Shown one piece after another: positions 29-6,398 of a DNA stretch of 57,922 nt. Source of the stretch: Bacteroidia bacterium (lineage in GTDB: Bacteria > Bacteroidota > Bacteroidia > UKL13-3). Within the stretch, counting starts at the first letter, position 1. Every line of letters begins with the position of its first letter. The stretch lies in assembly GCA_023151275.1 (NCBI GenBank), contig JAKLJI010000020.1, positions 1 through 57,922 of the forward strand, read 5' to 3'. A program made the position numbers and the translations under genes. Under the pieces are notes generated by a model, which was given only the letters and a program-made list of their open reading frames with translations, was not told the origin of the DNA and did no database searches.

Positions 29-69
29 AGGCTTAAATCGAAGCCGGAAGAAGGGCTTCGTTTAAGCCT
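29..69 (-). terminator. Hairpin at the 3' end of the TIR/SLOG operon
   Basis: Arms at 29-45 and 54-69 form a stem of about 16 bp (one bulge) around an 8-nt loop. The stem abuts the stop codon of the SLOG gene. There is no clear T-run after it on the minus strand, so it could be a terminator or mRNA-stabilising hairpin, or an end structure of the island. Confidence 0.6.
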
Positions 70-1046
70 TATTTGTTCAAGCTGGTCTTCTCAATTATTT
101 TCTTTAAGCCTTTCATTATAAGAATTACTATTTCATGTATATTTTGACTTTCGAACAGAACAAGATTTTCATCGACAGTTAAACCATTCATATCCGATAA
201 TATTTCGAGTTGGAATTGATTTAAGAAATCTAAAAGATCATTGTAATCTATAGGCACACTTGCTTTATCTGAATATACATTCTTAAATTCCTGAATAAAA
301 GAATTACTGTATTGAAACTCATTAGTCAATTCTTTAGGAACATTACCTTGAATAACATTTGAAAGAGATTTGGCAGCACCTCCAAAGCCACCAATTATGT
401 ATATAGGTTTATTTGCCTTTAGTGAATAGTACGCTTCTTCAATTATGCCTGGTAAATAGCCTAAATAATTACTTTGTTTTCCACCCAATAAAATTCTCGC
501 ATTACTTTCATTAGCCATTAATCTTCTCATGTCTGAGAAACATTCTGAGAAAATATACCGGTCTTCGATATTATTAAAGGGGTTATATTTCCGATTCTTA
601 TCGATTTCTCCTAAATGCGGTGGTATTTCAATCACAAAAGGTTCAACCTGCTGTTTAACAAAATCCGCTCTCATTTCTAATGTAAGAGAAATGCTGTTTG
701 GAAAAGGGAAATAGTTTACAAATCGAAATGATTTATCATTCAAAAATTTGTATTGATAAGATAACTCTGCAAATAGCTTGGTAAATCCTTCATTTTTTAA
801 GTGACCGCCATACAAAAGTTTACCGCCATTTGCCATGATATAACGAGCTAATTCAATCATTACATCTTTTAAATGGTGAGTTGAAAGCCCCAATAGTTCT
901 AAATCCTCATTGTCAGAAATCGAAACAGCAACTCTTATTCCGTTTAGGACTCCTTTTTGTCTTGATTTTGCCTCAAGTTCCTTTTGCTCTGCGATTGATT
1001 CTGCAAGATTTTCAGAAATTCCCGATATGTTCTTTTCAGCTTCCAT
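69..1046 (-). CDS. Stand-alone SLOG-domain protein (putative nucleotide-signal receptor)
   Basis: This 325-aa soluble protein has a Rossmann-like fold with SLOG/LOG-type glycine motifs. RVAVSIS (38-44) opens the first strand, GGKLLYGGH (74-82) is the first glycine loop, ILLGGK (185-190) and PGIIEE (199-204) form the second, and PIYIIGGFGGAA (214-225) follows. The first 35 residues and the last 80 look helical. SLOG domains bind nucleotide-derived ligands; in Thoeris ThsA a SLOG domain senses the cyclic ADP-ribose isomer made by TIR proteins. Here no SIR2 or membrane domain is fused to it. It is the last gene of the five-gene operon, starting 2 nt after the stop of the double-TIR gene. Inferred role: receptor for a signal made by the TIR proteins. 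The SLOG assignment is good; the ligand is a guess. Confidence 0.75.
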   Translation of the reverse strand: MEAEKNISGISENLAESIAEQKELEAKSRQKGVLNGIRVAVSISDNEDLELLGLSTHHLKDVMIELARYIMANGGKLLYGGHLKNEGFTKLFAELSYQYKFLNDKSFRFVNYFPFPNSISLTLEMRADFVKQQVEPFVIEIPPHLGEIDKNRKYNPFNNIEDRYIFSECFSDMRRLMANESNARILLGGKQSNYLGYLPGIIEEAYYSLKANKPIYIIGGFGGAAKSLSNVIQGNVPKELTNEFQYSNSFIQEFKNVYSDKASVPIDYNDLLDFLNQFQLEILSDMNGLTVDENLVLFESQNIHEIVILIMKGLKKIIEKTSLNK

Positions 1047-1048
1047 TT

Positions 1049-2215
1049 TTACAATGTTGGTAAGTAAATAGGTGTAACAAATTTGATGTCCTTATCTATG
1101 TCGTTTAATATTCTAAGTTCTTCAGCTCCCAGTGGTGGTTCAGGATAAAGTACAATCAGTTTCTTTTTTTCTGAAAGCTTCATCTTATATAGGTCTATAT
1201 AATTGAATAGCTCCGGGGGTGATGTGATCGTAACAAACTCGGCTTGGTCATTCTTGAATTCAGCCTCAAATGATTGTAACAATTCTCGTTGATAAAGATT
1301 GTTTACTACTTGATAAAGCGTTAAGGTCAGTATTTCTATGAAACTTGAAGATTCATCATCTTTTAATGTTATTGTAGGTGTATTACCCATATAAGGGAAT
1401 GCTCTCTTTTCACCATCCTTAATATCATGTACTACAACAATGGAGCATTTATTTCGCTTTGCAACAAGGACTTCAATACGGCACCATTCTCTGGATGAAT
1501 ATTCATCTGTATGAAAAACAACCAAAGCGGCATTCTCAATATTAGCCTCAATTTGCTTCTCAAATTCATAGCCATCAGCAATATCAACTGTATCGAAGAA
1601 TACATCCAGCTTAGTTTCTGATTCAACAAATACTTTAAATTTCTTTGTTGTTTCTTCTCCATCCTTTTTGGCGTGGCTTAAAAACAGTTTTACTGGAGAT
1701 GGTATTTTACTGCCTTTTTTATCCATCCAAACTGGTTGGAAATTCATCAGTAATCGAGCACAATCATGTAAAAGTTCTGATTTTATTTTTCTGATTCCCT
1801 TTTCGTATTCTTCTCGAATATTAATAAATCCATCATCGTATCTGATGAATTGAATGGAGTCAAGTCCACATCCAATACCTGTAGCTTGTTTACATAATGC
1901 AATTGGATAAATTCTAGTATTGTCATCCATTAGACTAATAAGTTGCTTTGTATACTCTTGAAAACCTCCATTTGTCATGTAATTTTCATCAATGAGCAGA
2001 ATAATTGCGTTTCTCCTTGCAACGTTTATATCAACTGGAATAAGAGAAGCACTTCGATAGTATACTTGTATTCCTAAGCCTCTTGAAAGTGGCTCTTCAA
2101 TATCTCTGCAAAATGTGCTGTACAAATCATTAGCAATTTGTTTTCCCTCTACAAAGGAAGGATGCCAGACCACAAAAAGTGATAATGGATATTTTAGTCT
2201 GTTTTTCATTCGCAA
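1049..2215 (-). CDS. Protein with two TIR-type domains
   Basis: 388 aa. The second half is a convincing TIR domain: VKLFLSH (175-181) starts the first strand, and SREWCRIE (241-248) carries the Trp and the Glu (E248) expected at the NAD-cleaving site. The first half (about 10-130) has the same layout (SLFVVWHPS, then IILLIDENYM, then YPIAL) but no W-x-x-E, so it is probably a degenerate TIR. A tail (about 315-388) contains LIVLYPEPPLGAEEL, which I do not recognise. TIR enzymes hydrolyse or cyclise NAD+. The gene overlaps the upstream DUF1863 gene by 10 nt and is followed 2 nt later by the SLOG gene, so the set is probably co-translated. The catalytic call for the second domain is inference from one motif. 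Confidence 0.8.
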   Translation of the reverse strand: MRMKNRLKYPLSLFVVWHPSFVEGKQIANDLYSTFCRDIEEPLSRGLGIQVYYRSASLIPVDINVARRNAIILLIDENYMTNGGFQEYTKQLISLMDDNTRIYPIALCKQATGIGCGLDSIQFIRYDDGFINIREEYEKGIRKIKSELLHDCARLLMNFQPVWMDKKGSKIPSPVKLFLSHAKKDGEETTKKFKVFVESETKLDVFFDTVDIADGYEFEKQIEANIENAALVVFHTDEYSSREWCRIEVLVAKRNKCSIVVVHDIKDGEKRAFPYMGNTPTITLKDDESSSFIEILTLTLYQVVNNLYQRELLQSFEAEFKNDQAEFVTITSPPELFNYIDLYKMKLSEKKKLIVLYPEPPLGAEELRILNDIDKDIKFVTPIYLPTL

Positions 2216-2997
2216 GTGTCTTTATCCATTTGTGGAATGGATTTGTTTATGATTTTTTCAGTTTCACTTTTGCCATTGAAGGCATTCTCAATGTATTGTT
2301 GCATTTTTACCCGGTCATCTGTCCAATCGTATAATTTAGCATACCCAGAGTCAAGATTAGCGGCTAACCTCTTAGGTAAATTAGCCGGGTTGTATTTTTT
2401 GCCTTCACCATGGTCGGGATGACTTGGTAGTAGTAGTCCTATTAAACCTGAGTTGCCGCCTACTCTTGATGAAATTGCACCCGAAATTTCCCAATCAACA
2501 TGCTTACGACATTTTGTTTTTGGACCAACCAAAACAACCAATACAGTTGTATCAGACAAGTATTCCTTCTGAATCAACTGCTTTATATATTCATCACTGT
2601 TGTCTGAATCAATGTCGCCATCTTCAACGGATTTACTTACTATTAAATCACCAAAAAGATTCTCGAATTTAGTTCTATAATCTTGATCATCTTTATGATA
2701 GTAGCTAACAAAGGTCTTCCTTTTTGTATCGTTTAACGGCAGTTTAAAAGGCCACTTAAAATAACCGCCTTCATAAGTAAATGGATTACCTCTTATCCAT
2801 TTATCTTCTTCTTTCGGATTAGGTGTCATGACTGAAATTTGATAACCAGCAGTAATCTTATTAACCATCCACTGTCTGCTCTGTGTTGTTCCATTGTCAA
2901 GGCTTTGTCCATCGTATTCATAAACAGTTACATCACGAATGAGTTGGCCGTCTTCTCTAAAAGAGAGTCTTGTTACGAAGTATTCTTTATTTGCCAT
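2206..2997 (-). CDS. ThsB-like (DUF1863/MTH538-type) TIR protein with an N-terminal extra domain
   Basis: 263 aa. Residues 94 to about 230 form a TIR-like domain of the DUF1863 type: KTFVSYYHKDD (94-104), TVLVVLVGPKT (151-161) and HVDWEI (166-171) with the putative catalytic Glu at 170. The ThsB subunit of Thoeris belongs to this type. Residues 1-90 form a separate small domain, with RQWMVNKITAGYQISV (41-56), that faintly resembles DUF3892 domains; this is uncertain. It starts 9 nt after the stop of the upstream TIR gene and overlaps the next gene by 10 nt. Expected role: sensing infection and making a nucleotide messenger from NAD+. Which of the four TIR proteins is active cannot be told from sequence. 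Confidence 0.78.
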   Translation of the reverse strand: MANKEYFVTRLSFREDGQLIRDVTVYEYDGQSLDNGTTQSRQWMVNKITAGYQISVMTPNPKEEDKWIRGNPFTYEGGYFKWPFKLPLNDTKRKTFVSYYHKDDQDYRTKFENLFGDLIVSKSVEDGDIDSDNSDEYIKQLIQKEYLSDTTVLVVLVGPKTKCRKHVDWEISGAISSRVGGNSGLIGLLLPSHPDHGEGKKYNPANLPKRLAANLDSGYAKLYDWTDDRVKMQQYIENAFNGKSETEKIINKSIPQMDKDTCE

Positions 2998-3006
2998 ATC
3001 TGTAAA

Positions 3007-3570
3007 TTAGTATTTGTCACTTATCAAACTATCCATAACTCCATACAATGGATTCAAGGAGCTACCATGGTCACTCATCATTTTGGTTTCCAACAATATT
3101 TCTTTCTTTTTCCCACTCAATCGTTCGACAAGCCCATTTAAGTCATATATGTCTCTTATAATTGTTGCAGTTCTCACATATTCGGGGAGCTTTCCTTTTG
3201 GAATTCCTTTTAAACAAAGTACCCCTAAGTCGGTTTTATCATATCCATATCCAATTTCAAATGGAACCCATGTAGAATATAAGGTATCTGGAGAAACTAA
3301 AACTAGCATATGACTACTATTGTTAATTCCGTTGCAAATTGCCTTTGTTACCTCCTTAGGATTGTCATTTTGATGTTGGAGTTTCAATTCTTTATCATAA
3401 ATGTCTATGTAAACATCTATGCCTGCTCCCTGTAAGTAGTCTGCAACTTTAATAGCTGCATCTCTGTCTTTCTTCTGATATGAGATAAATACACACTTTA
3501 TACCAAGAGAAACTACTTGATTCCTTGATTGATATTTTGTTGGATAATAAAATCTATTTAATCCTGTCAT
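3007..3570 (-). CDS. Single-domain TIR protein
   Basis: 187 aa, one TIR domain. CVFISYQKKDRD (26-37) is the first strand and loop, GIDVYIDIYD (50-59) the second, MLVLVSPDTLYSTWVPFEIGYG (88-109 region) the strand and helix holding the putative catalytic Glu (E105). This WVPFEIGY form differs from the DWEI form of the two flanking DUF1863 proteins, so the operon mixes two TIR subfamilies. No transmembrane segment or extra domain is visible. It starts 5 nt downstream of the first gene of the operon. Expected activity: NAD+ cleavage or cyclisation, by family knowledge. Confidence 0.8.
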   Translation of the reverse strand: MTGLNRFYYPTKYQSRNQVVSLGIKCVFISYQKKDRDAAIKVADYLQGAGIDVYIDIYDKELKLQHQNDNPKEVTKAICNGINNSSHMLVLVSPDTLYSTWVPFEIGYGYDKTDLGVLCLKGIPKGKLPEYVRTATIIRDIYDLNGLVERLSGKKKEILLETKMMSDHGSSLNPLYGVMDSLISDKY

Positions 3571-3575
3571 GATGT

Positions 3576-4118
3576 TTAAATTCTAAAACCTAGAAAATTC
3601 CAATAGTCTTCCTCCATTCGCTCTCTGCTGTTATCTATTTTTCGGGGGACATTGGTTCTGTTCCAATAGGCATAGTTCACTTTACTTTCAAAATCTCTTT
3701 CTAGATTTTCCCATTTCATACTAACTGCATATCCTGATTTAATATTGTCGGCTAATCTGTCTGGCACAGAATGACTTTCAGTTGGAAGATAGATAGCTAA
3801 AAGTCCATTTGGTTTAAATGATTTCAATGGGTCGTATGGATGCGTGTAACCTCTCAAAGACGCCCAAATTTCCCAGTCAATCCATTTTCGATGTCCAGTC
3901 CTTGAACCAACTAGAACAACGGTTACAGAACAGTTCCGCATTTTTTCACGAACCTTCTTATAAATTGTTTCATCAGTTAAATGTCCAATATCGTCCTTAA
4001 GAGAATAGTCAGCTACCCTCATATTTGTGATTGTCTTGCGGAGTTTAGCCAAATATTTTTGGTCGTTGTCGTGATGATAACTTACAAAACAGTTTCGGAT
4101 TTTCTTTTCTATTGCCAT
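3576..4118 (-). CDS. ThsB-like (DUF1863-type) TIR protein, first gene of the operon
   Basis: 180 aa, almost entirely one DUF1863/ThsB-like domain: RNCFVSYHHDNDQ (8-20), CSVTVVLVGSRTGHRKWIDWEIW (within 63-85) with the putative catalytic Glu at 83, and LLAIYLPT further on. It is the closest of the five proteins to the known Thoeris ThsB layout, and shares both motif spacing and a C-terminal 'LADNIKSGYA' stretch with the protein encoded at 2206-2997 ('LAANLDSGYA'), suggesting duplication within the operon. It begins the tight run of minus-strand genes. The 161-nt gap upstream separates it from the graspetide genes, so it probably has its own promoter. Confidence 0.8.
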   Translation of the reverse strand: MAIEKKIRNCFVSYHHDNDQKYLAKLRKTITNMRVADYSLKDDIGHLTDETIYKKVREKMRNCSVTVVLVGSRTGHRKWIDWEIWASLRGYTHPYDPLKSFKPNGLLAIYLPTESHSVPDRLADNIKSGYAVSMKWENLERDFESKVNYAYWNRTNVPRKIDNSRERMEEDYWNFLGFRI

Positions 4119-4279: not shown

Positions 4280-5062
4280 TTACTCACAAGGATTTTTAGG
4301 CTTTTTCTTAGGGCAAGGAATAAATATTTTCTTGATAATTGTTGTGTCTGTCTTGCCGTTATTATTTATAAAAACAGGATTGTTTTCGATATTAATTTTT
4401 GGAGTTTGGTTGTAATCACAAGATGTTGACTTGTTAGAATCAGGTGTTTTGTCTTGCACTTTTGGTTTAATAAACAAAAGCGAACAGCAAATTAAAACGC
4501 CCAATAAAGCAGTTAGTGTATTTGCTACTTTAAAAGAGTTGTAAGAGTGAATTAGGTTCGTTGCTTTAGTATTATTCGTTTTTAAATTTTGATTAGCTCC
4601 GTGCAATAAATCCTTTATCTCAATTGCTGTAAACTCATCTGTTGTTTTGTCTTGGTATTTAAGAACATTAGTCGGTGAAGGTTTACTATAAATAAAATTC
4701 TTGATGTTAAAATTTTTGATTGCATTTCTAATTGTCAGCATATAGAATAGAAAAGCTAATATCAAGATGACAAGAAAAAGTAAGCGAATTAACAAAGTCT
4801 GCCCACTAACTTTGTCTATGAATATGGGAATAAATAAATTTAAAAGTGAGAATATGATTCCCGTCTGAGAAACAAGTTGTGAGGTTTTATTTTCAATTAA
4901 ACTCAACCTGCTATTTTCTTCAGCTTCAATTGATTTTAGAAACTCTTTGTGTGCTTTTATTTTGTCTTTGTCTGTAGTGATATAGTCTGCGACAGAATAT
5001 GTGTAAGGATTTACATCAGATTTATCTAACCAAAGCCCAAACTTATTTAGAAAGGTTTTCAT
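4280..5062 (-). CDS. Membrane protein with three predicted TM helices, downstream of the graspetide ligase
   Basis: 260 aa. Hydrophobic stretches at about 66-84, 90-110 and 178-198 look like a TM hairpin plus a third helix. The N-terminal 60 residues are charged and helical (KDKIKAHKEFLKSIEAEENSR), and a polar, Asn/Lys-rich tail follows residue 200. I recognise no family with certainty; the layout recalls small membrane proteins of the SLATT or cyclic-nucleotide-effector kind, but no diagnostic motif is present. Its start lies 2 nt after the stop of the ATP-grasp gene, so it belongs to that operon. Possible roles are export or immunity for the graspetide. A role as membrane effector for the downstream TIR/SLOG genes is also possible but is not shown by anything in the sequence. 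Confidence 0.7.
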   Translation of the reverse strand: MKTFLNKFGLWLDKSDVNPYTYSVADYITTDKDKIKAHKEFLKSIEAEENSRLSLIENKTSQLVSQTGIIFSLLNLFIPIFIDKVSGQTLLIRLLFLVILILAFLFYMLTIRNAIKNFNIKNFIYSKPSPTNVLKYQDKTTDEFTAIEIKDLLHGANQNLKTNNTKATNLIHSYNSFKVANTLTALLGVLICCSLLFIKPKVQDKTPDSNKSTSCDYNQTPKINIENNPVFINNNGKTDTTIIKKIFIPCPKKKPKNPCE

Positions 5063-5064
5063 TT

Positions 5065-5982
5065 TTATTTTATTAGTTGATTAATGATTGCGTCTGATAT
5101 TTTTTGTCCTGTTTGAGTTTCAATCCAGGCCCATTGTCCGTTCGGATTGATTTCTAAAAACACATATTCCTCATTAGGCGTTTTTATCAAATCAATTGCT
5201 CCAAATTTTAAATCAAGTTCTTTCAAAAGTGTGATGCACTTTTGTTGTATTTCGTTAGGTATTTCAACTGGTTCAAATTTTAATTTCTTTTTCCTCCAAT
5301 CATTTTTTGTTTCCTCGTCTGCCTGTGAATAAACTGCTGCGGAAAAAACCAAATCTCCAACAACCGTAACTCTTAATTCATACTCTTTGGGAATATTTTT
5401 TTGATAGATGCAAGGTGTTAAATCATAGCTTTCAATATTAGTAATATAATCTTCAGGAATGGGATTAGTAAAAATGAAGGCGGAGCCTTCATTGTATTGA
5501 ATTCTTGTTTGTGAAATTGGTTTTAGAATTATGTCATGATTGCAATCAGAGTAAAATTGTTTTAGTTCTTGCTTTGAGTTTGTTATCAGTGTTTGCGGAA
5601 TATTGAACCCAATTTTAATTGCGGTTTTCAATTGCAGCAGTTTATTTTCCGCTTCATAAACAGCAGAAGGAGAACTTAACCAGTTTGCAGTAAGAGTAGA
5701 AAAAATATTCTCGAATAGACTTTCTGTTTCGTATAAGATGTAAAGTTTCTCTTCTCTTTTCAGTCCTTTAATCTCTGGTAATTTTGTTCTGCGAAACCAA
5801 ACTGATTTATACTTTTCCTCTCCAAGAATTGAATATGTAAAATTTGAATTCAGTTTAATTTTATATTCATCTTTAAAGATGTCCTCACAGTTTAATCGCT
5901 TGTATGCAATACCTCTTTGATTTAGTTTATTGATTACAAAGTCAGCTGTAAAATCAGTTTTGTGAGTTATTATTAAAATCAT
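5065..5982 (-). CDS. ATP-grasp graspetide macrocyclase (MvdD/MdnB-like ligase)
   Basis: 305 aa, the usual length for microviridin-type ATP-grasp ligases. Visible motifs are VWFRR (61-65) in the N-terminal domain, ILKP (152-155) of the ATP-binding domain, ELRVTVVG (202-209), GAIDLI (261-266) and FLEINPNGQWAWIE (275-288). The last carries the metal-binding Glu/Asn and the Asn-Gly-Gln-Trp signature of this family. Such enzymes use ATP to activate Asp/Glu side chains of a precursor peptide and join them to Thr/Ser hydroxyls (esters) or Lys (amide). The gene overlaps the precursor stop by the tetranucleotide ATGA, so the two are translationally coupled. There is only one ligase, so ester macrocycles alone are expected. 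Confidence 0.9.
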   Translation of the reverse strand: MILIITHKTDFTADFVINKLNQRGIAYKRLNCEDIFKDEYKIKLNSNFTYSILGEEKYKSVWFRRTKLPEIKGLKREEKLYILYETESLFENIFSTLTANWLSSPSAVYEAENKLLQLKTAIKIGFNIPQTLITNSKQELKQFYSDCNHDIILKPISQTRIQYNEGSAFIFTNPIPEDYITNIESYDLTPCIYQKNIPKEYELRVTVVGDLVFSAAVYSQADEETKNDWRKKKLKFEPVEIPNEIQQKCITLLKELDLKFGAIDLIKTPNEEYVFLEINPNGQWAWIETQTGQKISDAIINQLIK

Positions 5983-6398
5983 TTCCAGTCCTTGTCTTGG
6001 TCTGTTGATTCTGTTGATTCAGTCAATGTTGAAGTGTCCATGAGTGCTTGCATGGTCATTCTGTCTCTGTCGCTATCTGACTGTTCGGTTGAAGTAAAAG
6101 TTCTTGTTTCAGTATCCATAAGATTCTTCATTCCATTATGGTCTGTGTCGGTTGTTTCACCCTCTGCTCTTGTAAAAGTTTCGGTGTCAGTAAGCATGCT
6201 AATTCCATTTTTGTCAGTATCAGCATCTTCGCCATCTGCTTTCGTAAATGTTTCTGTGTCCATACTAATGCTATCTATTGCAGGGTGTCTTGTTATTTTG
6301 TTTACACTTAAATTTAGTTGGTCGTCATACTCAATTAAGGAAAAATCAAGGTCTGCACCTGTCGGTGTTTCTTTGAATTGGAATGCTAATGGTCTCAT
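5979..6398 (-). CDS. Multi-core graspetide precursor peptide (four Thr/acid-rich cores)
   Basis: 139 aa. Residues 1-45 look like a leader (RPLAFQFKET, then DFSLIEYDDQLNLSV). Four repeated cores follow, at about 48-62, 72-86, 98-110 and 122-135, each fitting TxTxT-x(2-4)-ExxDxD. For example core 1 has T48/T50/T52, E57, D60 and D62. Linkers share a (M/L)xxLMD-like stretch before the next core. Repeated Thr donors and acidic acceptors are the mark of graspetides, and the adjoining ATP-grasp ligase supports this. From memory, a bicyclic multi-core group with a TxTxTxxExxDxD consensus has been described; I cannot check it here. No Cys, no signal peptide and no obvious protease site are seen. A precursor of this kind would yield several rings per molecule or several products after cleavage. 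Confidence 0.88.
   Translation of the reverse strand: MRPLAFQFKETPTGADLDFSLIEYDDQLNLSVNKITRHPAIDSISMDTETFTKADGEDADTDKNGISMLTDTETFTRAEGETTDTDHNGMKNLMDTETRTFTSTEQSDSDRDRMTMQALMDTSTLTESTESTDQDKDWK

What the first reader, a model, noticed from the sequence alone, without database searches (positions are those of the whole stretch)
69..4118. Five-gene TIR/TIR-like plus stand-alone SLOG operon without a visible effector
Seen: four consecutive genes with TIR-type domains of at least two subfamilies (DWEI-type DUF1863 twice, WVPFE-type once, a double-TIR protein once) followed by a SLOG protein, with gaps or overlaps of -10 to +9 nt. Known: in Thoeris a ThsB TIR makes a cADPR isomer sensed by the SLOG domain of ThsA, whose SIR2 domain destroys NAD+. 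Inference: a related signalling system in which several TIR sensors feed one SLOG receptor and the effector is missing, is encoded elsewhere, is one of the TIR domains itself, or is the membrane protein upstream. I know of no described system with this composition.
Basis: partly seen in the sequence, partly recalled or inferred. Interest (0 to 1): 0.88.

Follow-up and report, generated by a model that had tools for sequence, protein, structure and literature searches.

The report
Split TIR–SLOG suicide-switch defence operon
Five adjacent bacterial genes look like a Thoeris-type anti-virus alarm in which three TIR proteins probably make a signal from NAD+ and a sensor protein (SLOG), paired with a fourth TIR protein, probably reads it and kills the infected cell, so the 'missing' killer is most likely the gene right beside the sensor.

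Summary
The five genes exist as described: four TIR genes and an LD_cluster2 SLOG gene, tightly packed. The claim that no effector is visible does not hold. The 388-aa TIR gene directly upstream of the SLOG gene is fused to it in 20 of 78 evaluable relatives and abuts or overlaps it in the other 58. Seeded from the SLOG instead, 7 of 8 genomes agree. The two proteins co-diverge (r = 0.88). Its TIR domain has the SARM1 fold and an invariant catalytic Glu. The SLOG model's best PDB match is the 3'cADPR-bound ThsA SLOG, with two ligand-contacting residues conserved. The upstream membrane protein belongs to a separate ATP-grasp peptide cluster. Best reading: ThsB-like TIRs make an ADPR-type signal and a split TIR–SLOG effector reads it and destroys NAD+ (inferred, untested). 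Nearest known kind: type III Thoeris, which has the same gene layout but a sister SLOG family (LD_cluster3); the window proteins miss its NCBIfam cut-offs. New variant of a known kind. Side finding: a base-modification-like gene cassette recurs around this module, though not in the window.

The parts
3576..4118 (-). ThsB-type TIR protein, 180 aa; putative sensor/signal synthase; catalytic Glu E83 at 3870-3872
   Evidence: Pfam ThsB_TIR E 1.9e-19; Glu in 6 of 6 members aligned under this label
3007..3570 (-). TIR_2/ThsB-type TIR protein, 187 aa; putative sensor/signal synthase; E105 at 3256-3258
   Evidence: Pfam TIR_2 E 2.6e-13, ThsB_TIR E 6.9e-11; Glu in 65 of 66 members aligned
2206..2997 (-). 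ThsB-type TIR protein with ~90-aa N-terminal extension, 263 aa; putative sensor/signal synthase; E170 at 2488-2490
   Evidence: Pfam ThsB_TIR E 3.3e-18; Glu in 79 of 81 members aligned
1049..2215 (-). TIR388: N-terminal alpha/beta domain, TIR domain (about 174-305), C-terminal alpha/beta tail; putative NADase effector half; E248 at 1472-1474
   Evidence: Pfam TIR_2; model pLDDT 86.7; SARM1 TIR Z 16.0; W244, C245, E248 invariant in 40 of 40; fused to or next to the SLOG in 78 of 78 evaluable loci
69..1046 (-). LD_cluster2 SLOG protein, 325 aa; putative ADPR-type signal receptor half of the effector; R174 at 525-527, E204 at 435-437
   Evidence: Pfam LD_cluster2 E 5.7e-92; model pLDDT 91.4; BcThsA SLOG with 3'cADPR Z 16.6; R174/E204 align with ThsA R371/E403
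29..69 (-). RNA hairpin starting at the last base of the SLOG stop codon; possible end of the transcript (no T-run)
   Evidence: minimum free energy -26.1 kcal/mol for the 75-nt stretch, z -4.8; arms located

Best explanation
A Thoeris-like abortive-infection operon. Steps: (1) one or more of the three ThsB-type TIR proteins (180, 187, 263 aa) recognises a phage component (inferred from Thoeris). (2) The activated TIR converts NAD+ into an ADP-ribose-derived signal, exact molecule unknown (inferred from family and conserved catalytic Glu). (3) The SLOG protein binds the signal in the pocket that ThsA uses for 3'cADPR (fold and two contact residues shown by computation; ligand inferred). (4) The SLOG protein forms one effector with the adjacent 388-aa TIR protein; in many relatives the two are a single polypeptide (genetic linkage and fusion shown; physical complex inferred). 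(5) Signal binding assembles the 388-aa TIR domains into an active NADase, and NAD+ loss stops the infected cell (inferred by analogy with SIR2-SLOG ThsA and CARF-TIR Cat1).
For: Of 80 genome loci seeded with the 388-aa TIR, 2 are cut by contig ends; in the other 78 the SLOG is fused (20) or abuts/overlaps it (58), -31 to +8 nt in the 54 split pairs measured. SLOG-seeded: 7 of 8 genomes. Plasmids: 11 of 11 records with either gene have both side by side or fused, counting one where an IS breaks the TIR (all opened; profiles). Co-divergence r 0.881 over 90 loci, best of 1,000 permutations 0.07; the fusion state needs at least 7 changes, 4 forced. TIR domain fold: SARM1 Z 16.0, SPARTA, Cat1 Z 13.4; E248 invariant 40 of 40. 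SLOG: BcThsA+3'cADPR is rank 1 in Foldseek (E 1e-4) and VIA (Z 16.6), followed by other ThsA and TRPM2. R174 and E204 invariant 38 of 38 and aligned with ThsA R371 and E403, named as 3'cADPR-coordinating in PMC10022894 (passages). Five-gene set in the same order in L025 and L026, and by TIR class in L040. Five of the loci lie inside a type I R-M operon (Pfam on L023).
Against: No experiment. Fusion and linkage show a functional unit, not which half kills: the 388-aa TIR could be another signal maker. The two aligned SLOG residues are (recalled) also the conserved Arg and Glu of LOG enzymes, so catalysis is not excluded; K388 of ThsA has its counterpart one column off and is not invariant. One SLOG (G351) stands without the TIR on its 6.3-kb contig. 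22 of 80 loci had no TIR gene under 420 aa within 6 kb by my profiles; some of these carry longer TIR proteins (L052, L063), others may sense otherwise. The contig ends 68 bases after the SLOG gene.
Confidence: 0.6

Rival explanations
1. The 388-aa TIR with its SLOG is a signal amplifier or second synthase: SLOG binding of a first signal switches on the TIR to make more or another messenger, and the killer is encoded elsewhere or differs between hosts.
For: TIR domains of ThsB type make signals, so an active TIR (E248 invariant) need not be a depleting NADase. The neighbours of the module differ widely.
Against: Closest folds include SARM1 and NAD+-depleting bacterial TIR effectors (SPARTA, Cat1). 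No shared additional gene after the SLOG in the five nearest relatives. No other STALD SLOG or ThsB_TIR in the genome.
Confidence: 0.2
2. The SLOG is an enzyme of LOG type that cuts or converts the TIR product, either finishing the signal or switching it off.
For: Invariant R174 and E204; LOG proteins are among the structural matches (5zbl, 7w2i); PMC9503650 argues that some SLOG domains act on N-glycosidic bonds (passages).
Against: Best structural matches are receptor SLOGs (ThsA with 3'cADPR, then TRPM2/TRPM8) ahead of LOGs from cytokinin metabolism. Repeated fusion to a TIR with a conserved catalytic Glu fits a sensor better.
Confidence: 0.12
3. The 260-aa membrane protein upstream (4280-5062) is the effector.
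For: Next gene upstream, same strand; membrane effectors exist in type II Thoeris (PMC11204291, passages).
Against: 161 nt separate it from the first TIR gene but only 2 nt from the ATP-grasp gene. Besides the window, 1 of 116 relatives has a homologue, and there it lies next to the ATP-grasp homologue and a precursor homologue. No tblastn match to it, the ATP-grasp or the precursor in 132 other fetched loci, which include all the TIR388 and ThcA loci.
Confidence: 0.02
4. An unread gene beyond the contig end is the effector.
For: Contig stops 68 bases after the SLOG gene.
Against: Hairpin at the stop, though without a T-run; what follows the SLOG differs in the five nearest relatives: a transposase-like gene on the other strand (by eye), a Fic protein, a calcineurin-like phosphoesterase, an unidentified protein, a type I R subunit.
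Confidence: 0.04

Closest known systems
Type III Thoeris (NCBIfam ThcA NF058525, ThcB4 NF058526)
   Same: Stand-alone SLOG directly downstream of a ~390-aa protein with a central TIR in the 4 of 5 loci where that side can be read, and 1-3 further TIR genes beside them. SLOG families detectably related (hhalign E 4e-7); TIR parts align (E 6e-10).
   Different: ThcA is LD_cluster3 (PF18180), the window SLOG LD_cluster2 (PF18163). The window SLOG has no ThcA match at E 1 and TIR388 scores 40 bits against a ThcB4 cut-off of 220. N- and C-terminal domains of TIR388 and ThcB4 are not detectably alike (4 ThcB4 rows only). I could not read a paper on type III.
Type I Thoeris (SIR2-SLOG ThsA with ThsB TIRs)
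   Same: ThsB-type TIRs; SLOG with the ThsA fold and conserved R371/E403 positions; more than one ThsB occurs (PMC11204291 and PMC12578639, passages).
   Different: No SIR2 domain in the operon; the partner of the SLOG is a TIR, in most loci a separate gene.
Cat1 (CARF-TIR of type III CRISPR)
   Same: Ligand-sensing domain coupled to a TIR NADase; TIR fold match Z 13.4.
   Different: Different sensor domain, and a nucleotide signal made by Cas10 (PMC12162218, passages).
Type II and type IV Thoeris
   Same: TIR-made ADPR-derived signals act on a co-encoded effector (PMC12948488 and PMC12847820, passages).
   Different: Effectors are TM-macro (II) and caspase-like (IV); Pfam finds neither domain in the operon.

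Membership tests
Thoeris in general | One or more ThsB-type TIR genes in an operon | tested here: met
   ThsB_TIR above Pfam cut-off in the 180-, 187- and 263-aa proteins
Thoeris in general | Effector with an ADPR-signal-binding domain in the same operon | tested here: inconclusive
   SLOG with ThsA-like fold and pocket residues, fused to a TIR in relatives; binding untested
Thoeris in general | Phage protection through a TIR-made signal | not testable with these tools
   Needs an experiment
Type I Thoeris | SIR2-SLOG ThsA | tested here: not met
   No SIR2 in the operon; SLOG below the STALD cut-off (22.7 vs 24 bits); no other STALD in the genome
Type II Thoeris | TM-macro ThsA | tested here: not met
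   No macro domain by Pfam in the operon or the three genes upstream; the rest of the genome was not searched for one
Type III Thoeris | ThcA SLOG (NF058525, cut-off 110 bits) | tested here: not met
   No match at E 1 for the window SLOG and none at E 0.001 in the genome
Type III Thoeris | ThcB4 TIR (NF058526, cut-off 220 bits) | tested here: not met
   TIR388 scores 40.4 bits, TIR region only
Type III Thoeris | Gene layout: stand-alone SLOG right after a ~390-aa TIR, with ThsB-like TIRs | tested here: met
   Window compared with ThcA loci L102, L104-L106; layout read from those loci, as no paper on type III was seen
Type IV Thoeris | Caspase-like protease effector | tested here: not met
   No peptidase domain by Pfam in the eight proteins scanned; the rest of the genome was not searched for one

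The most novel reading that the evidence does not exclude
An all-TIR Thoeris branch, spread over at least ten phyla by the labels of its contigs, in which one domain type senses, signals and kills, with the receptor SLOG either fused to the killer TIR or split from it; and in roughly a third of the loci the module is wired to a base-modification-like cassette (Nmad2, MazG/MazG_C, HMUDK_hel, thymidylate synthase-like, UDG-like), which could make or sense modified nucleotides as part of the same defence.
Probability: 0.25. Interest if true: 0.78.

Novelty: new variant of a known kind. Interest (0 to 1): 0.52.

Why it matters
It turns a puzzle (a receptor with no effector) into a direct hypothesis: the killer is the adjacent TIR. 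It predicts a Thoeris branch whose signal maker and executioner are both TIR enzymes, and it gives named pocket and catalytic residues to test. A relative of the module is on the chromosome of 12 of 5,426 complete E. coli genomes, so tests are feasible in a common host. The recurrent base-modification-like cassette is a separate open question.

Tried and rejected
Membrane protein as effector: rejected. Effector elsewhere in the genome: no second STALD or ThsB_TIR; macro, caspase-like and SIR2 genes elsewhere were not searched for. PF18723 gave nothing in the window's genome; no control rang, but the same family rang in 6 of 395 genomes of the phylum. SLOG in phages: no tblastn match at E 1e-5 in 50,697 records. 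phmmer of the SLOG against PDB sequences: only chance matches; profile A4 likewise. N-terminal domain of TIR388 as a second TIR: hhalign too weak; the VIA list covers residues 173-305, so that domain's fold is untested. Foldseek's top rows for TIR388 were sugar isomerase (SIS) domains at TM about 0.2, read as generic Rossmann matches. Pycsar TM hit of the membrane protein: E 0.02, ignored.

A terminator after the SLOG: there is a hairpin but no T-run, so it is called only a hairpin. K388 of ThsA: not claimed as conserved. My first fusion count (21) included L048, which is split. Three loci (L066, L096, L099) had the SLOG hidden by my ORF filter and were recovered by six-frame search. One search parsed 79 of 80 loci (L099 dropped), and the same filter may hide neighbours. 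could not test the 139-aa precursor (the filter hid even the window's copy), so tblastn was run on the DNA. My first 'fused' tag was over-applied and was replaced. Two plasmid records with TIR388 seemed at first to lack the SLOG; opened and searched by profile, both have it right after TIR388. Loci L010 and L043 come from the same contig and give identical TIR388 rows. A family labelled 'c17SLOG?' turned out to be a TIR protein. The UDG-like family has no Pfam match at E 0.001; its name is the annotation in two plasmid records.

Literature on type III: searches of the held library gave no description of ThcA/ThcB4 or of a TIR-SLOG effector that I saw in the listings; most subscription papers are not held, so this is no proof of absence. 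The 2015 SLOG classification paper was not held.
Full report
Observation. The minus strand of 69-4118 carries five close-packed genes, in transcription order TIR180, TIR187, TIR263, TIR388 and SLOG325 (gaps 5, 9, -10, 2 nt). Pfam names the first three ThsB_TIR/TIR_2, finds one TIR_2 in TIR388 at residues 178-285, and names the last LD_cluster2 (PF18163, E 5.7e-92). PADLOC gives only low-scoring partial matches, mostly to ThsB, and NCBIfam gives no match over its cut-off for these five. The first 6 kb are 31-36% G+C against 35-47% in the rest of the window. TIR388 is 88-93% identical to proteins of four other Bacteroidota (a Bacteroidales MAG, Agriterribacter, a Flavobacteriales MAG, Algoriphagus) but only 40% identical to that of G048, a member of its own family. 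That pattern suggests horizontal transfer.

The missing effector. Plasmids of Gloeothece, Priestia and Aureispira carry TIR388 and SLOG as one protein of about 690 aa, while Klebsiella and Pseudomonas veronii plasmids carry them as adjacent genes. A scan of the species-genome collection with the TIR388 alignment gave 129 relatives, of which the best 80 were kept. Two of these are cut by contig ends. In the other 78 the SLOG is fused (20) or abuts/overlaps TIR388 (58), with spacing -31 to +8 nt in the 54 pairs measured. The converse test starts from the SLOG: it occurs in the window's genome and one of 146 other relatives, and in the window's genome and six others in a draw of 395 genomes of the phylum. 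Of these eight genomes, seven have TIR388 next to or fused to it; G351 does not, on a 6.3-kb contig. In all 11 plasmid records that match either protein (9 for SLOG, 11 for TIR388) both genes are there together: three fused, seven side by side, and in L006 TIR388 is broken up by an IS3 element. TIR388 and SLOG distances correlate at 0.881 over 90 loci (best of 1,000 permutations 0.07). Fusion needs at least 7 changes on the TIR388 tree, 4 of them forced by well-supported branches. So the two genes form one functional unit that was repeatedly fused or split.

Parts of the unit. The TIR388 model (pLDDT 86.7, pTM 0.88) has an N-terminal alpha/beta domain, a TIR domain and a short C-terminal alpha/beta tail. 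The TIR part matches SARM1 TIR (Z 16.0, rmsd 2.5, 124 aligned), SPARTA TIRs and Cat1. W244, C245 and E248 are invariant in 40 of 40 sequences. The SLOG model (pLDDT 91.4) matches the BcThsA SLOG with 3'cADPR best, in Foldseek (E 1e-4) and in VIA (Z 16.6, rmsd 2.8, 183 aligned), ahead of TRPM2/TRPM8, DprA and LOG proteins. Profile alignment places R174 and E204 on ThsA R371 and E403. PMC10022894 (passages) names R371, K388 and E403 as coordinating 3'cADPR; it also reports that mutants of these residues were overactive in planta. R174 and E204 are invariant in 38 of 38; K190 is one column off K388 and varies. The same Arg and Glu are, from memory, also conserved in LOG enzymes, so a catalytic role is not excluded.

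The other TIRs. The catalytic Glu is present in 79 of 81 TIR263-like, 65 of 66 TIR187-like and 6 of 6 TIR180-like proteins aligned (labels are by best profile and overlap). Within 6 kb, 58 of 80 loci have one to three further TIR genes under 420 aa by my profiles and 22 have none, some of which carry longer TIR proteins instead. The full five-gene set in window order recurs in L025 (Algoriphagus) and L026 (Ferruginibacter), and by TIR class in L040 (Mesonia); L022 has the same five with the first two swapped. Several ThsB per system is known in Thoeris (PMC11204291 and PMC12578639, passages).

What is not part of it. Upstream lie a 260-aa membrane protein, an ATP-grasp enzyme of the MvdC/MvdD kind (E 1e-68, below cut-off) and a 139-aa repeat peptide. 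None of the three has a tblastn match (E 1e-3) in 132 other fetched loci, which include all the TIR388 and ThcA loci. In genome G074 all three recur together in the same order (precursor 115 aa, ATP-grasp 314 aa, membrane protein 252 aa), and my profiles find no TIR or SLOG on that 14-kb stretch. They are a separate peptide-maturation cluster. Downstream, the contig ends; a hairpin begins at the SLOG stop codon (z -4.8, no T-run), and the five nearest relatives have different genes after the SLOG.

Mechanism. Steps shown by computation: genes, linkage, fusion, folds, conserved residues. Steps inferred: phage sensing by the ThsB-type TIRs, an ADPR-type signal, its binding by the SLOG, assembly of TIR388 into an NADase, NAD+ loss. 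The analogy is to ThsA, where signal binding to the SLOG drives assembly and NADase activity (PMC12948488, passages), and to Cat1, where ligand-driven stacking builds the TIR active site (PMC12162218, passages).

Comparison with known systems. NCBIfam names a type III Thoeris with ThcA, a 184-aa SLOG, and ThcB4, a 375-aa TIR. In a draw of 395 Bacteroidota genomes ThcA occurs in 5 (phylum by the organisms of related loci). Read here, four of these loci have a ThcB4-like TIR directly upstream of ThcA, while the fifth is cut by the contig end; two of the four were scanned and pass the ThcB4 cut-off. ThcA is LD_cluster3 (PF18180 in three loci scanned). The window SLOG is LD_cluster2, unmatched by the ThcA model at E 1, and TIR388 scores 40 of the 220 bits needed; relatives score a little higher but all below cut-off. 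By profile the two SLOG families are related (E 4e-7) and so are the TIR regions (E 6e-10). The window system is therefore best filed as a sister variant of type III Thoeris, not as a proven member. No paper describing type III could be read.

A side finding. Around TIR388-SLOG, a base-modification-like cassette recurs: of 79 loci parsed, Nmad2 in 30, MazG with MazG_C in 27, HMUDK_hel in 21, a UDG-like protein in 11 and a thymidylate synthase-like protein in 4. In 23 loci at least one of these lies in the same operon, often between TIR genes (Pfam names from representatives; the UDG-like family has no Pfam match and is named after two plasmid annotations). In the phylum draw, HMUDK_hel is in 6 of 395 genomes and LD_cluster2 in 7, both in 2 (hypergeometric 0.004; adjacent in G174, on different contigs in G404). 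HMUDK_hel also occurs without TIR388-SLOG in the 14-16 kb read around it in four genomes, one of them with a TIR gene and Nmad2. An E. coli chromosome locus has TIR, TIR, TIR388, SLOG and, on the other strand, Nmad2, TIR, HMUDK_hel and thymidylate synthase. The window and its nearest relatives L022-L026 lack the cassette.

Verdict. It is a new variant of a known kind, with a testable all-TIR mechanism.

Noticed in passing
L027-L032, L036-L039, L041-L044, L051, L060, L069-L071, L073-L076, L079, L098, L138, L145 (not in the window): A base-modification-like cassette (Nmad2, MazG/MazG_C, HMUDK_hel, thymidylate synthase-like, UDG-like, in varying combinations) recurs around TIR388-SLOG, in 23 of 79 loci within the same operon, often between the TIR genes (L138, L145).
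   Followed up: partly
window 4280-6398, minus strand; L128 6332-8356: Three-gene cluster: repeat-bearing precursor (TETFT...D.D repeats), MvdC/D-like ATP-grasp ligase, membrane protein; conserved as a block in G074. Candidate graspetide (omega-ester peptide) cluster with an unusual membrane partner.
   Followed up: partly
window 29-69, minus strand: Strong hairpin starting at the SLOG stop codon (z -4.8) without a T-run; function unknown.
   Followed up: no
L023, L024, L026, L035, L040: The TIR-SLOG genes lie inside a type I restriction-modification operon, between hsdS and hsdR (Pfam on the L023 members).
   Followed up: partly
L138 (E. coli chromosome, NZ_CP031653.1 1932004-1951460): A relative of TIR388-SLOG is on the chromosome of 12 of 5,426 complete E. 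coli genomes (megablast, so a lower bound), in the one opened beside an AriA-like ATPase gene and a MobC gene; annotated only as TIR and hypothetical proteins.
   Followed up: partly
L034, L064, L094: A further ~340-aa family (cluster 17) recurs in three loci, in L034 and L094 directly after the SLOG; the L094 member has a C-terminal TIR_2 domain and an unidentified N-terminal part.
   Followed up: partly
L020/L129 (G351:C13): An LD_cluster2 SLOG gene without the TIR388 gene on a 6.3-kb contig; the one exception found.
   Followed up: partly
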